In this document: positions 5,130-53,393 of the stretch, in pieces
Numbering within the stretch: the stretch's first letter is position 1
How the letters are laid out: each line of letters opens with the position of its first letter
NCBI GenBank assembly: GCA_905236385.1
Contig: CAJOOY010000054.1
Span: forward strand, 1 to 57,275
Direction: 5' to 3'
Source: an uncultured Spirochaetia bacterium
GTDB taxonomy: Bacteria > Spirochaetota > Spirochaetia > Sphaerochaetales > Sphaerochaetaceae
Length of the DNA stretch: 57,275 bases
Position numbers and translations under genes: made by a program
Notes under the pieces: model-generated
The model's input: the letters and a program-made list of their open reading frames with translations, nothing else
Database searches by the model: none
What the model was told of the DNA's origin: nothing

Positions 5130-6582
5130 TTTGATCTCCGCTTGCTTTAATCACATTTTTGTAAAAATCCACTGCTCCAGGCAGACAGGAGACAGAAATG
5201 CATTCATCAATTCCATGCATACCCTTCATCTGCTTAGGTCCGTAGAGAACCGGAGCAAAACGCACACAGGTGTCACAGATTTCCTGATAGAAGCGAGCAT
5301 CTGTTCCACCGGTCATAACGTAAGGAACGCTAACTATTGTCGGGAAGGTCTGCTTGATAACACGCTCAACCAACTTGTAGGCTTCTCCGTTCATGTCCGG
5401 AGACGGCATAGCATCGTTAGCAAGAAGAATCTCAGTTTCTAGCCCATATTTCTTTGCCATTTCAGTAATTATCTTTAAGCTCTCTTCCTTTCCCTGATTC
5501 TTTCCGAACCTGATATTTGCCGTAACTGAAGCCTCTGCAGGAATTACATTAAAGGCATCTGAGCCGCTTTGCATGGTAAAACAGATACTTGTTCCAAGCA
5601 TGGCAGCCCCCTGAGCAGAAATAAGGGGCATGAGGCGCACAAGAAGCGGTCCGAAAAGCCACAAGTTTCCAAAGACAAGAGCAAGTGGAAAGGAAGAATA
5701 ATCAGCCACAGTTTTAAAGAAAAGCCTCACTTCAGGGATGAGTTTTCTTTCAAATGGAGACTTCTTTTCAACCGCGTTAACAAACTTTGCAAGCCTGGCT
5801 ATTGGAGAATTCTTAGTTGGAGCACTGGCGTGCCCACCTGTGCTTTTTGCAGTGAACCTCACTCCGCACATACCTTTCTCCACTATTCCCATAACAGCAA
5901 AGTCACCCTTAACTCCACCAAGAACATCTCTAATAATTCCTCCGCCCTCATCACACACCAGAAACGGCTTAATTCCCTGCCTTCTCAAGTGGTCCACAAG
6001 GGATGGACAACCAGGCCCTGCCCACTCTTCTGTGCAGGAGGAGGAAAGGTACACATCTTCTTTTGGCTTGTAGCCTTCCTTTAGCAGCTCTTCAACTGCC
6101 TGAAAGAAGGCCATAACCGTACACTTGGTATCCGCAGTTCCACGGCCCCAGACAAGAGAATCTTCAATATCTCCGGAAAACGGCTCGTGTTTCCACTTTC
6201 CTTCTGCAGGAACCACATCCTGGTGGCCCATGAGAACTATGGGTTTATCGCTCTTCTCTCCCTTCCACTTAAATAGAAGGTTTCCGTTAATCTCTGTCTT
6301 CTCCAGATTCTCATGAACCAGAGGGAAAAGCTCTCTAAGTAGAGCATGAAAATCATAGATTTTTTCAGGTTTATCCACTCCACTTCTTGAGACTGTGTTT
6401 ATCTTAACCATCTGAGAGAGTTTATTTGCGTACTCTTCTTCTCTCTCTTTATCCCCAAGAGGAACGTAAGAAGAAGTTCTCTTTCTGAAAACTTTGGCAT
6501 GAACAGTTCTTAAAACTGCTATCATCAGAAGAACAAGAAGGATAGAGATTAGCAGGCAGAGGGCCTGAAGAGCGTAGATCAT
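5116..6582 (-). CDS. Membrane-anchored M20 metallohydrolase (carboxypeptidase S / PM20D1-like)
   Basis: A 488-residue protein with an N-terminal membrane helix (about residues 5-27) and an M20 dizinc hydrolase domain. GHQDVVP (His120, Asp122), WGRGTADTK (Asp151) and CTEEWAGPG (Glu185/Glu186) give the metal ligands and catalytic base; GGHASAP marks the dimerisation domain; GGTDARF is the late metal-site motif. N-terminal anchor, length and order fit carboxypeptidase S-type members, which hydrolyse peptides or N-acyl amino acids. Its ATG overlaps the stop of the preceding membrane protein (ATGA). Position in a tryptophan-controlled operon suggests it releases aromatic amino acids; that is inference. 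Confidence 0.88.
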   Translation of the reverse strand: MIYALQALCLLISILLVLLMIAVLRTVHAKVFRKRTSSYVPLGDKEREEEYANKLSQMVKINTVSRSGVDKPEKIYDFHALLRELFPLVHENLEKTEINGNLLFKWKGEKSDKPIVLMGHQDVVPAEGKWKHEPFSGDIEDSLVWGRGTADTKCTVMAFFQAVEELLKEGYKPKEDVYLSSSCTEEWAGPGCPSLVDHLRRQGIKPFLVCDEGGGIIRDVLGGVKGDFAVMGIVEKGMCGVRFTAKSTGGHASAPTKNSPIARLAKFVNAVEKKSPFERKLIPEVRLFFKTVADYSSFPLALVFGNLWLFGPLLVRLMPLISAQGAAMLGTSICFTMQSGSDAFNVIPAEASVTANIRFGKNQGKEESLKIITEMAKKYGLETEILLANDAMPSPDMNGEAYKLVERVIKQTFPTIVSVPYVMTGGTDARFYQEICDTCVRFAPVLYGPKQMKGMHGIDECISVSCLPGAVDFYKNVIKASGDQNGKE

Positions 6583-49080: not shown

Positions 49081-52000
49081 TTATTCTGAAACTTCATCAT
49101 ACGGATTATTCCAGAGCTTAGAGAAAGGTTGATATACAGTCTTACCTGTTGCTCCGGTAGAATCTGTGTTAATGTAACCACCTGTATTGCTACAATGGAA
49201 ATAATATCCATCACTTGTTTTGAGCACACTTACATTATTTGCTTGTGCAATTGCATTTATAGCGGATAATCCTGTAATTTCCATTTCTGCCTTCGTCATA
49301 CCAGTATATGATGATTCATCCCCGACTCGTAAAACAATGTACTTACTCTGCTGACCTACAACACGATCTTCATAGACAAAGAAACTAAATGACGAATCTC
49401 CTATAACATAATAAAATCTACGATTTTGTTTCACTGTAGATTCTACTGACTGTGTACTAATTGCTGCAGCATTTTGAGTATTACTATAGATAGGAGCGTA
49501 GGCAACTATCATATCACCCACAGTCCCAGATGTCTCCAAATCTCTGACACAAGGATAAAGAGTCAATGTCCCCATATCATCAGTAACTTCCATGGAATCA
49601 TTATATCTTGTCCCAACTCCGTTTGTATCAGTAAACCAGCCCACAAAAGCATAAGATGTATCTGTAAGAGTTACAGTAGCTAGTCCACCTTGACTTGCAA
49701 ATGTTTTGTCAGATTCATAAGCCTTTGTACCAAGGTATTCATATGTATCAGATCCAATTTTAATAGCGCTTATATAACTACTTGTATTGCTAAATGTAAT
49801 TGTTGCACCTTTTGTCTTCCAAACTGCATACAAATTTGTTCCATCATCATTTGCTGTAAACGTTGTTACTGTAGCTTCAGCATCAAATTCTTTTGTTCTA
49901 TCTGTAGCATTACTTGTTGACCATCCGTCAATCTTTTGAGTATCTGTTTCAAAATCATCCCCCAAGTCTGATGCAGATGGAATAGTTATTGAAGAATACT
50001 CATCAAAAGCCTTGCTAACTGACACATTTGTTCCGTCTTCAAGACCAACTGTGTTAAATACAATCTCAAACTTAGGAGAATAAATAAATGCACCTGAGGA
50101 TTCAGTTTCATAGACATTCTCGCTGTATTTATACACAGAAGTTTCATCTTCTGTTGTTATAGTCAGCTTATATACGCGTTGAGCAGTAGAATCATTCAAG
50201 TCTTTGCTACTTGTTATTGTGTTACCATAGGTAACAAACATTCTGCACTCTGATTCTCCTATTGTAATACCATCATCAAAAGTGAAACTCTTAGCTGAAG
50301 TAGCTATCCATCCACCATAAAGTGTGCTTCCACCAAGATGACCATAACTAAAGTTAAGAGTAGCTTTAGCACCACCAACAAGACCAGTAAATGTGAAAGA
50401 TTCAGGCAGTTCAACGAACGCGAAGTTTGAACTACTATCAGCACAAGGCTCACTGAAAATAGTTACATCTCCAGTTTCTGTAACTAATTTAAGAAGATCA
50501 TTGATTGTATTGAATCCGTTATCCGTGCTTCTTCCTTTAACAATAAAATTTCCTCCATTCAGATTATTATCTCCTGAAGCACCAGAATAAACAAAGTTTT
50601 CGAAATATCCACCGTTGATAGTTAAATCGCCTTCTCCAGTGTGAGTAAGATTGTAGAAATAGGCTGCATTGATTTCACTATCAGTATTGCCACTGACAAC
50701 TGCAGTTCCCACTTCCAGAGTAGTTCCAGCAGAGGTAGCTGAAACTGAAAGTTCATAAGCATAAAGATTCCCAATATAACTGAAACTCGGTCCGGAAGCA
50801 TTCATCGGGTTTTCAATAGAAACAGAGCTTGCAGGAGTATATTCATCTCCTGTTTTCCCATTTGCAACAGCATTAGCTATAATATGGGAATTCTTAATGT
50901 TTATTTTATCTGCGTAAACATTTCCGCTGATATCTACAGTCAGATTTCCTTCCTTTCCTTTTATATCAACCTTGTCTGTAGCTGTGACAGCTCCTGTTTT
51001 AAACGGATCTGTGATTGTAGAATTTGAATTATCAATTGTCACATCACCATCTTCACCACTTGCTGTTATTGCTCCCGCTGTTCCGGAAGCATTTGTCATG
51101 CTGATATCTCCACCTGTTGATGTGACAGACGGAGCTGTTTCAGTTCCTGAGTCGAACTCTACATATGTAAGATCAATAACTTCTGTTACAGAGACATTTC
51201 CTCCTATGACTACATGTTTGTCTGCATTTCCTGTGGCATCAAGAGATACTGCACTTATGGTGCCCGCTGTCAGAAGCTCTCCCGTGGAAGAAACTTCTGA
51301 ATTGGCGATTGTTATCTCTCCAACAGTGGCAGTTATATCCGAAACTGCTCCCGTTGTCTTTGTCAAACTTATGTTTCCACCGGTTGAATTAAGAGTTGAT
51401 GCAACAAGTGTTGTAGAAACAAGACGTGAGTCTGTGAGAGAAATATTTCCTGAAGCCGTAACGTTACCCTGGAAGTAACTTAGATCACTACCGGTAACAG
51501 TTGCAACCGTAACATCTCCTTCGATCTTTCCGGCTGAAACAGTCAAATCTCCACTAAGGGTTACATCTCCAATTATGTAGGAACTTGTGACAGAGAGATC
51601 AGATTCGCTTCCTTCTGCTGCTGTGATATCTCCTACAAATCTACCTATCCCTTTGATTGTCAGATCAGCACCATTTGTAAGCTCTATGCTGTATTTTGAA
51701 GCAACATAATCATCACCAAAAACAATTATAATTGATTTATCAAGAACAACAGCCATGAATTCTTTTCCTGAATCATTATCTTCGCCAATCAGCTTGATCT
51801 CAGTATCATCTGACTCAAGAGAATCAACAGCCTCCTTCAGGCTTCCGTAGAAGTATGTATGCTCGCCCCTTGAGATAATCCAGAAACCCTTGTCAACGTT
51901 CTCAATCGTTCCGGTCGTGTCAACTATGGTTCCATAAGGGCTTGTGCCGTAGCTGGTCTCACCTTCTGTTACATCATTCACTGTGACGTATGAGACGCCT

Positions 52001-52572
52001 TCTCCTTCGACAACAAGACCTGCAGGTCCATACATCCTGACATCTTCAAGATAGTTTGCTGCAAAAAGCTTTGCTCCATCTGAAACACTGACTGGTCCGT
52101 TGACTGTTACACCTGCATGCAGAATTGCCTTGGAATCCGTTCCCTCAGCGCTTAAGACAGAAAGACTCTTGTCTGTACTGGTAAGCGACAGAGTTCCGTT
52201 TGTAACGGAAAGGTCTGCTCCTTCAAGAACTTTGACTGCACTGTCCTTGACATCAAAGAACTTAAACTCATGTCCACCGAGATTCAGGATTACAGAGACA
52301 CCGGACGGTATTACTACCGGTCTGCTTGCTGCATCCCCTATCAGTTTTATGGTCCCTTCTTCTACCGACTCCTTTATTGCCTTGATGGCATCTGAGAGAC
52401 TGTCGTAGTACTTTCCGTTGTACTCAAAGGCGCCATTTGTCTCAAGAATCTCTGTGTATGCATAGTCTTTATTCTCTGTTGTTATTACACCACTGTCACA
52501 GGAGACAAGGGTGCAGAACAAAAGCATGGTTGCAATAATAGCTATTATGATTGTTTTGATTTTGTTATTCAT
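49081..52572 (-). CDS. Large surface lipoprotein with beta-helix repeats and InlB-type repeat
   Basis: 1163 residues. Signal peptide with lipobox LVSC (Cys25). Two similar N-terminal modules (YYDSLSDAIKAIKE...GTIKLIGD and YFYGSLKEAVDSLES...EIKLIGED) are followed by a long Ser/Thr/Gly-rich beta-helix region (about 300-690: GDVTLSGDLTVS, GGNISLTKTTG, GGDISMTNASG, GDLTINGGYFENF). A Listeria-Bacteroides (InlB B-type) repeat with GWSTSNATDRTKEF...ANDDGTNLYAVWK lies near 890-960. The product is probably exposed at the cell surface as an adhesin. It follows the outer-membrane barrel gene by 18 nt and shares its promoter with a 10-G tract. Confidence 0.85.
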   Translation of the reverse strand: MNNKIKTIIIAIIATMLLFCTLVSCDSGVITTENKDYAYTEILETNGAFEYNGKYYDSLSDAIKAIKESVEEGTIKLIGDAASRPVVIPSGVSVILNLGGHEFKFFDVKDSAVKVLEGADLSVTNGTLSLTSTDKSLSVLSAEGTDSKAILHAGVTVNGPVSVSDGAKLFAANYLEDVRMYGPAGLVVEGEGVSYVTVNDVTEGETSYGTSPYGTIVDTTGTIENVDKGFWIISRGEHTYFYGSLKEAVDSLESDDTEIKLIGEDNDSGKEFMAVVLDKSIIIVFGDDYVASKYSIELTNGADLTIKGIGRFVGDITAAEGSESDLSVTSSYIIGDVTLSGDLTVSAGKIEGDVTVATVTGSDLSYFQGNVTASGNISLTDSRLVSTTLVASTLNSTGGNISLTKTTGAVSDITATVGEITIANSEVSSTGELLTAGTISAVSLDATGNADKHVVIGGNVSVTEVIDLTYVEFDSGTETAPSVTSTGGDISMTNASGTAGAITASGEDGDVTIDNSNSTITDPFKTGAVTATDKVDIKGKEGNLTVDISGNVYADKINIKNSHIIANAVANGKTGDEYTPASSVSIENPMNASGPSFSYIGNLYAYELSVSATSAGTTLEVGTAVVSGNTDSEINAAYFYNLTHTGEGDLTINGGYFENFVYSGASGDNNLNGGNFIVKGRSTDNGFNTINDLLKLVTETGDVTIFSEPCADSSSNFAFVELPESFTFTGLVGGAKATLNFSYGHLGGSTLYGGWIATSAKSFTFDDGITIGESECRMFVTYGNTITSSKDLNDSTAQRVYKLTITTEDETSVYKYSENVYETESSGAFIYSPKFEIVFNTVGLEDGTNVSVSKAFDEYSSITIPSASDLGDDFETDTQKIDGWSTSNATDRTKEFDAEATVTTFTANDDGTNLYAVWKTKGATITFSNTSSYISAIKIGSDTYEYLGTKAYESDKTFASQGGLATVTLTDTSYAFVGWFTDTNGVGTRYNDSMEVTDDMGTLTLYPCVRDLETSGTVGDMIVAYAPIYSNTQNAAAISTQSVESTVKQNRRFYYVIGDSSFSFFVYEDRVVGQQSKYIVLRVGDESSYTGMTKAEMEITGLSAINAIAQANNVSVLKTSDGYYFHCSNTGGYINTDSTGATGKTVYQPFSKLWNNPYDEVSE

Positions 52573-52590: not shown

Positions 52591-53139
52591 TTAGAAATTC
52601 ATCTGTGCGCCGAGTGTAGGATTCAGATTAATAATTGAAGCCTTGTAGTTAGAATTCTTAGAAGCAGCTGTGCTTCTTGTGAAATCCAAACCACCGACAA
52701 TTGAGAATTTATCTGAAAGCTTGTAGCTAACATTCAGGTCGGCTCCGAGTACAAAGTTTATATTGGAAGAAAGCCTGGATACATCAAACTCTCCGCCTAC
52801 TCCTGCATTCACACTCATTCTCATCTTCTCTGAAAGTTCAAAACCTGCTCCTACCTTTGCAAGCACCTGCAGGTTTCCAAGATGAGCTGTTATGTGTTCC
52901 TTGTTGTATTTGTAGTTCCTGTATGAGACATCTGCTCCCACCTGGAACACTCCGAATGAATGTGTGTATCCTGCCTTGAATCCAAAACCATAGTTTGACC
53001 TGTGTTTTGTGTTGATGGTTGTGGATACGAACTGCATTCCATATGGTGTACCTGTTAAACTTATGCTGTTGTCTGAAGCTGCAAGAAAAGATACAGCTAC
53101 AAGAGCAAGCAACAGTACACTGAGTACCTTTTTCTTCAT
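52591..53139 (-). CDS. Small outer-membrane beta-barrel protein
   Basis: 182 residues. Signal peptide KKKVLSVLLLALVAVSFLAA, then about eight amphipathic strands (YGFGFKAGYTHSFG, FQVGADVSYRNY, MRMSVNAGVGGEFD, NFVLGADLNVSYK) ending in GAQMNF with the terminal Phe. The size fits an OmpA/OmpX-like eight-stranded barrel. Ribosome site GGGAGG. Co-transcribed with the lipoprotein; the pair may be a surface complex. Confidence 0.85.
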   Translation of the reverse strand: MKKKVLSVLLLALVAVSFLAASDNSISLTGTPYGMQFVSTTINTKHRSNYGFGFKAGYTHSFGVFQVGADVSYRNYKYNKEHITAHLGNLQVLAKVGAGFELSEKMRMSVNAGVGGEFDVSRLSSNINFVLGADLNVSYKLSDKFSIVGGLDFTRSTAASKNSNYKASIINLNPTLGAQMNF

Positions 53140-53226
53140 CAGAAGAGCCTCCCAATTAGTGAAAAAACTTATTCGGAACAGCTGGCAAGCAGGTTTTTAG
53201 ACCTTTTTAAAACTATTCCGAAATGA

Positions 53227-53257
53227 AGTATACCCCCCCCCCGTATTGACAAGTCAA
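53227..53257 (-). promoter_or_regulatory. Promoter with 10-G tract in the spacer (phase-variable candidate)
   Basis: Minus strand: -10 TATACT (53232-53227) directly preceded by ten G (53242-53233). Possible -35 boxes are TTGACT (53257-53252, 19-nt spacer) and TTGTCA (53252-53247, 14-nt spacer). Loss of two G would give the ideal 17-nt spacer to TTGACT; gain of three would give it to TTGTCA. A 7-bp inverted repeat TATTGAC-AA-GTCAATA (53244-53259) overlaps both -35 boxes. The leader to the ATG at 53139 is about 80 nt. Confidence 0.7.
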
Positions 53258-53393
53258 TAATCATTTATCGAGAAAGACTTAATGCACAAAAACCTCTAAA
53301 TGCAACAAGAAATCAAAGCTTTTCTGGTTCAGAGACTTGTAGATCTGTGATTAATTTTGATATCATTTTGATATCATTAACAGGAGGTCTGTA

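What the first reader, a model, noticed from the sequence alone, without database searches (positions are those of the whole stretch)
53227..53259. Ten-G tract inside the promoter spacer of a surface-protein operon: a likely phase-variation switch
Minus strand TATACT is directly abutted by ten G, the only such homopolymer of G/C I see in the window. Spacer length to the two possible -35 boxes is 19 (TTGACT) and 14 (TTGTCA), both off the optimum; slippage by -2 or +3 would bring one to 17. The genes controlled are an outer-membrane barrel and a 1163-residue lipoprotein, classic targets for antigenic switching. Poly-G tracts in promoters of surface proteins are established in Treponema pallidum and Neisseria. 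An inverted repeat overlapping the -35 boxes adds possible repressor control.
Basis: partly seen in the sequence, partly recalled or inferred. Interest (0 to 1): 0.8.

Follow-up and report, generated by a model that had tools for sequence, protein, structure and literature searches.

The report
Poly-G promoter switch for surface proteins
A run of ten Gs wedged inside the promoter of an outer-membrane-barrel and surface-lipoprotein operon of an uncultured spirochaete is very probably a slippery on/off switch, and the same promoter design sits in front of dozens of surface-lipoprotein genes across its relatives, most of them uncultured.

Summary
It lies upstream of a predicted 8-stranded outer-membrane barrel and a 1163-aa lipoprotein. 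No read or same-species assembly was available, so slippage at this locus is not shown. Comparative evidence is strong. The full pattern TTGAC-N-G7+-TAnnnT occurs 293 times in 139 genomes of the family, against 1 for the reversed pattern and 2 for the same pattern with C. Most matches examined lead directly into lipoprotein genes. In an unbiased census of three genomes, 23 of 47 G9+ tracts sit in such a promoter before a lipoprotein. Copies with identical 5' flanks in one genome carry different G numbers (8/9/11 etc.; 12-15 in a one-contig genome of another family). A 1.1-Mb genome of the size of Treponema pallidum has the same geometry (TCGACA-N9-G9-TAGAAT) before a related barrel, matching the published TP0126 switch. 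I conclude: a transcriptional phase-variation promoter of the TP0126/porA kind, a low-copy representative of a much larger, apparently undescribed repertoire. The proposed repressor palindrome is unsupported: it occurs nowhere else in the genus. The closest relative of the operon lacks the tract.

The parts
53233..53242 (-). G10 tract (C10 on + strand), directly 5' of the -10 hexamer; proposed slippage site
   Evidence: the only G/C run of 10 in the genome
53227..53232 (-). -10 hexamer TATACT
   Evidence: TAnnnT abutting the G tract recurs in 293 family matches
53252..53257 (-). -35 hexamer TTGACT, 19 nt from the -10 (N9 + G10)
   Evidence: TTGAC register conserved in relatives
53244..53259 (.). 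perfect palindrome TATTGACNNGTCAATA overlapping the -35; not found elsewhere in the genus
53140..53220 (-). predicted 5' UTR (inferred start near 53220), beginning with a hairpin CGGAAUAGUU...AGCUGUUCCG; Shine-Dalgarno GGGAGG at 53148-53153
   Evidence: z = -2.3
52591..53139 (-). 182-aa outer-membrane beta-barrel protein with signal peptide
   Evidence: PF13505; AF2 pLDDT 81.5; Foldseek: NspA, OmpA, Ail, OmpX, OmpW
49081..52572 (-). 1163-aa lipoprotein (signal peptide, lipobox LVSC), second gene of the operon, 18 bp downstream
   Evidence: operon conserved in G001

Best explanation
The G10 tract is the length-variable part of a sigma-70-type promoter (TTGACT-N9-Gn-TATACT) for a barrel + lipoprotein operon. 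During replication the tract gains or loses Gs by slipped-strand mispairing. This changes the -35/-10 spacing and so raises or lowers transcription in a heritable, reversible way, making the population a mix of high and low expressers. If the 17-nt optimum published for TP0126 and porA holds here, the assembled state (G10, 19 nt) is low or off and G8 (17 nt) is on. Shown here: the anatomy, its recurrence before lipoprotein and barrel genes, different tract lengths between copies with identical 5' flanks, and the same geometry at a TP0126-like locus. Inferred: slippage at this locus, promoter activity, and which length is on.
For: Architecture TTGAC-N{8,17}-G7+-TAnnnT: 293 matches in 139 family genomes against 1 reversed control; 284 against 5 in a phylum sample. 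Unbiased census of all 47 G9+ tracts in three genomes: 23 have -35, abutting -10 and a downstream lipoprotein; 23 of 26 tracts with TTGAC precede lipoproteins against 3 of 21 without. Identical 5' flanks with different G numbers inside one genome: 11 of 14 groups in the family, and G12/13/14/15 in a one-contig genome of another family (G478). Outside the family, tract length and remaining spacer compensate (r = -0.61; spacer variance below permutation, fraction 0.006). A T. pallidum-sized genome has TCGACA-N9-G9-TAGAAT before a 223-aa OMP_b-brl barrel; published TP0126 expression peaks when poly-G length makes the spacer 17 (PMC7864442). porA has poly-G between -35 and -10 and switches 11G/10G/9G (PMC3639595). 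Other beta-barrel paralogues in the genus also have long G/C runs upstream (L006 G10-TATTCC; L015 C9).
Against: No reads or second assembly of this species: length variation at this locus is not shown. The consensus scan finds no 16-18 nt promoter here, as expected of an off state but also of no promoter. The orthologous operon in G001 lacks the tract, so the switch is not conserved with the genes. The family's modal spacer is 19, not 17. G is used and almost never C (293 against 2), which pure spacing does not explain. G8 runs are not in excess genome-wide by the dinucleotide-shuffle yardstick.
Confidence: 0.85

Rival explanations
1. A fixed promoter with a G-rich spacer: the G run is kept because Gs just upstream of the -10 help RNA polymerase (an extended -10-like contact or DNA shape), and length changes are incidental.
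For: Strong strand bias: G version 293, C version 2. The tract always abuts the -10 in the pattern, and the modal spacer of 19 is widely shared.
Against: Copies with identical 5' flanks differ almost only in G number; a mere contact would not need 8-15 Gs. Published reporter data show length dependence at T. pallidum poly-G promoters.
Confidence: 0.1
2. Chance or assembly artefact: a random G run, or a misassembled homopolymer, near promoter-like hexamers.
For: The window genome is fragmented (92 contigs); G001, the nearest relative, lacks the tract.
Against: About 0.014 G10 runs expected in the genome by run-length extrapolation. The architecture recurs 293 against 1 and in one-contig genomes such as G478 and G454.
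Confidence: 0.03
3. Regulation by a repressor or activator at the palindrome 53244-53259, with the G tract a passive spacer.
For: A perfect 7+2+7 palindrome overlaps the -35.
Against: Absent elsewhere in four genus genomes even with one mismatch; not present in the other poly-G promoters. In the window, 19 of 100 shuffles give such a site at two mismatches.
Confidence: 0.02

Closest known systems
TP0126 (OmpW-like barrel) poly-G promoter of Treponema pallidum
   Same: Poly-G in the -35/-10 spacer of a small OMP barrel gene. A T. pallidum-sized genome shows -35, 9 nt, G9 abutting TAGAAT; both proteins match Pfam OMP_b-brl (the second below the curated cut-off). Published: expression is best at a 17-nt spacer.
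   Different: Barrels related only weakly (27% over 99 residues, E = 0.004). The window promoter drives an operon with a giant lipoprotein, in a different family without flagellar rod genes. Length dependence not measured here.
porA poly-G promoter of Neisseria meningitidis
   Same: Poly-G between -35 and -10 of an outer-membrane protein; 11G/10G/9G variants change expression (PMC3639595).
   Different: Unrelated bacterium and gene, a single locus; here the design recurs before many genes in relatives.
Vlp lipoproteins of Mycoplasma hyorhinis
   Same: In the related genus g11: a repertoire of lipoprotein genes each with its own promoter holding a homopolymer, near-identical promoter and signal peptide, unrelated mature parts. 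Vlp: poly-A tract in each promoter (PMC10502178).
   Different: Poly-G instead of poly-A; loci scattered over contigs; found in a diderm spirochaete family. The window operon itself is low-copy and not a cassette.

Membership tests
Transcriptional phase-variable promoter with a homopolymer spacer (TP0126/porA type) | Homopolymer located between -35 and -10 hexamers | tested here: met
Transcriptional phase-variable promoter with a homopolymer spacer (TP0126/porA type) | Controls a surface-exposed or outer-membrane protein | tested here: met
   barrel and lipoprotein by Pfam, structure model, lipobox; localisation itself not measured
Transcriptional phase-variable promoter with a homopolymer spacer (TP0126/porA type) | Tract length varies between cells or strains at the same locus | not testable with these tools
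   One assembly per species, no reads. Indirect: copies with identical 5' flanks in relatives differ in G number
Transcriptional phase-variable promoter with a homopolymer spacer (TP0126/porA type) | Expression depends on spacer length, best near 17 nt | not testable with these tools
   Needs a reporter; compensation between tract and remaining spacer outside the family is consistent
TP0126 orthologue | Orthologous OmpW-like barrel | tested here: not met
   Only 27% identity over 99 aa; the A2 profile finds no match in G194. Works like it, is not its orthologue
Vlp-like promoter-leader cassette family | Several lipoprotein genes sharing near-identical promoter and leader but different mature proteins | tested here: not met
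   Met in related genus g11; not met for the window operon, whose full promoter pattern occurs once in its genome

The most novel reading that the evidence does not exclude
The window promoter is one member of a lineage-wide stochastic surface-expression system in spirochaetes of the Sphaerochaetaceae/Treponemataceae group. Many lipoprotein genes (up to 14 per genome by a strict pattern) each carry a TTGACA-N-G(8-15)-TAnnnT slippage promoter. In some genomes it is a copied promoter-leader cassette fused to unrelated lipoproteins, giving uncultured, presumably commensal spirochaetes a combinatorial surface coat, with a G-specific contact to RNA polymerase as a possible added feature.
Probability: 0.6. 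Interest if true: 0.8.

Novelty: new member of a known kind. Interest (0 to 1): 0.62.

Why it matters
Poly-G promoter switches are known from pathogens (T. pallidum, Neisseria). A 2025 review discusses an apparent restriction of multi-locus phase variation to pathogens, possibly a database bias (PMC11868660). Finding the same switch hundreds of times in a largely uncultured spirochaete family, most of it before lipoproteins, suggests that large stochastic surface repertoires are ordinary in these lineages and not special to the syphilis agent. It also gives a directly testable set: each promoter predicts, from its G number, a spacer length and an expression state that can be read in existing metagenomes and metatranscriptomes.

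Tried and rejected
Repressor palindrome: no second site in the genus. The -35 alternative TTGTCA at 14 nt: relatives keep TTGAC. Direct strain comparison at the locus: genome contigs returned only the UBA1265 relative, whose orthologue has no tract; aligned, it reads TTGACC...GTAAACTTCAGGAATAG with the tract missing, and a TTGACC-N17-TAGACT promoter can be read there instead, untested. The first MAFFT alignment misplaced this region. Pfam and NCBIfam give no family for the 1163-aa lipoprotein; a structure job for it had not finished when last polled. Literature searches for phase variation in Sphaerochaeta-like spirochaetes found no such report in the held library; one paper counts homopolymers in treponemes, and its passages on the tracts do not place them in promoters (PMC8049484).

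Full report
OBSERVATION. On the minus strand: TTGACT (53257-53252), nine bases TGTCAATAC, ten Gs (53242-53233), TATACT (53232-53227). The ten-base G/C run is unique in the 1.40-Mb genome, and the window has no other run above six. Extrapolating the run-length tail gives about 0.014 such runs in the genome. Dinucleotide shuffles are more generous: G8 mean 0.69 matches in the window, 4 of 100 shuffles at least as many as observed. I therefore put weight on position and recurrence, not on the run alone.

GENES. The 182-aa product has a signal peptide, matches Pfam OMP_b-brl just above cut-off, and is modelled as a barrel (pLDDT 81.5) whose nearest solved folds are NspA, OmpA, Ail, OmpX and OmpW. 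The next gene, 18 bp on, encodes a 1163-aa lipoprotein without a known family. The pair is kept in G001 (84% identical barrel, 58% identical lipoprotein). The divergent neighbour is a Band-7 protein.

ORGANISM. The nearest named record is Spirochaetales bacterium UBA1265. None of the 19 genomes of the family tested has the flagellar rod domain PF00460, while 8 of 12 other genomes of the class do. With the known lack of motility of the Sphaerochaetaceae (general knowledge), I infer that family. This is inference, not a classification.

RECURRENCE. The G7+TATANT pattern gives 33 matches in 139 family genomes against 5 for the reversed pattern. The full pattern TTGAC-N{8,17}-G7+-TAnnnT gives 293 against 1 (my sum of the table): 254 in genus g11, 27 in g2, 9 in one g21 genome, 2 in the window's own genus and 1 in g17. 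Several of these genomes are single contigs, so fragmented assembly cannot be the cause.

WHAT THE PROMOTERS DRIVE. Of 30 fetched loci, 24 had a readable ORF close downstream: 21 encode lipoproteins, 2 other exported proteins, 1 a membrane protein (my reading). To avoid the bias of a promoter pattern, I took every G9+ tract in three g11 genomes (47 tracts). Twenty-three have TTGAC upstream, TAnnnT abutting and a lipoprotein ORF after a ribosome-binding site; of tracts with TTGAC 23 of 26 precede lipoproteins, without it 3 of 21.

LENGTH INSTABILITY. Inside single genomes, promoters with identical sequence from TTGAC to the tract differ in G number in 11 of 14 groups: e.g. TTGACAAATCGATACC with G8 and G9, TTGACAAATTGATACC with G8 and G11 (G043), TTGACAAAATAATAC with G9 and G12 (G041). 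In a one-contig genome of f3 (G478), seven copies of TTGACTTTTGA carry G12 to G15. This is evolutionary evidence of slippage, not a measurement of switching. Inside the family this was not significant (9%).

CASSETTES. In G043 at least six lipoprotein genes share promoter, leader and a 95-100% identical signal peptide (MKKSILIGVLAALMLFAFTAC) while the mature proteins share almost nothing. This resembles the Vlp system of Mycoplasma hyorhinis, with a homopolymer in each promoter (PMC10502178). The window operon is not part of such a set.

POSITIVE CONTROL. A 1.1-Mb f3 genome (T. pallidum size; unnamed, identity inferred) has TCGACA-N9-G9-TAGAAT before a 223-aa OMP_b-brl protein, fitting the published description of TP0126, where expression is best at a 17-nt spacer (PMC7864442). 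The window has the same N9 + Gn geometry. The two barrels are not orthologues.

OWN GENUS. Eleven G8+ tracts occur in four genomes. Besides the window: G10-TATACT with TTGACT at 16 nt before an acyltransferase-like ORF; G10 and C9 upstream of other barrel paralogues; four tracts at or just before start codons; two inside ORFs; one upstream of another signal-peptide ORF. G001 has none, and its orthologous promoter lacks the tract.

OPEN POINTS. G is used and almost never C (293 against 2), although spacing alone would allow either. The family's modal spacer is 19 nt with a TAGNCT-like -10, so 17 nt may not be its optimum. The listing from which spacers were measured was cut by the tool, so those counts are samples (142 and 46).

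VERDICT. The most likely mechanism is slippage-driven change of promoter spacing giving heritable high/low expression of the operon (0.85). Membership in the TP0126/porA kind is met on anatomy; length variation and expression dependence at this locus remain to be tested. The individual feature is a new member of a known kind; the repertoire in its relatives is the more interesting discovery.

Noticed in passing
L182, L184, L185, L186, L187, L190 (genome G043, genus g11): Promoter-leader cassette: near-identical poly-G promoter, 5' UTR and 22-aa lipoprotein signal peptide before at least six lipoproteins with unrelated mature parts; several copies lie at contig ends.
   Followed up: yes
139 family genomes, patterns: Extreme strand bias: poly-G promoters 293, equivalent poly-C promoters 2. 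Not explained by spacer length alone.
   Followed up: partly
L015/L021 (G000:C15:13146-13154): C9 about 30 nt upstream of the start codon of a barrel paralogue in the same genome, apparently inside or next to a -35-like TTGCCC; possibly a second switch.
   Followed up: partly
L039 (G000:C67), L019 (G002:C39), L031 (G002:C83), L028 (G002:C75): G8-G10 runs directly before or a few bases from start codons, two of them of secreted-protein ORFs; possible translational switches acting on the ribosome-binding site.
   Followed up: no
L020 (G003:C10:9421-9429) and L027 (G000:C31:19695-19702): G9 and G8 runs inside ORFs, the first in the N-terminus of an epimerase-like protein; possible frameshift switches.
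   Followed up: no
window 53140-53220, minus strand: The predicted transcript would begin with a 10-bp hairpin (CGGAAUAGUU/AGCUGUUCCG), possibly stabilising the mRNA.
   Followed up: partly
L193 (G001:C22) 5600-5850: The orthologous operon lies in a different gene neighbourhood and lacks the G tract; TTGACC-N17-TAGACT can be read upstream, perhaps a locked-on promoter.
   Followed up: partly
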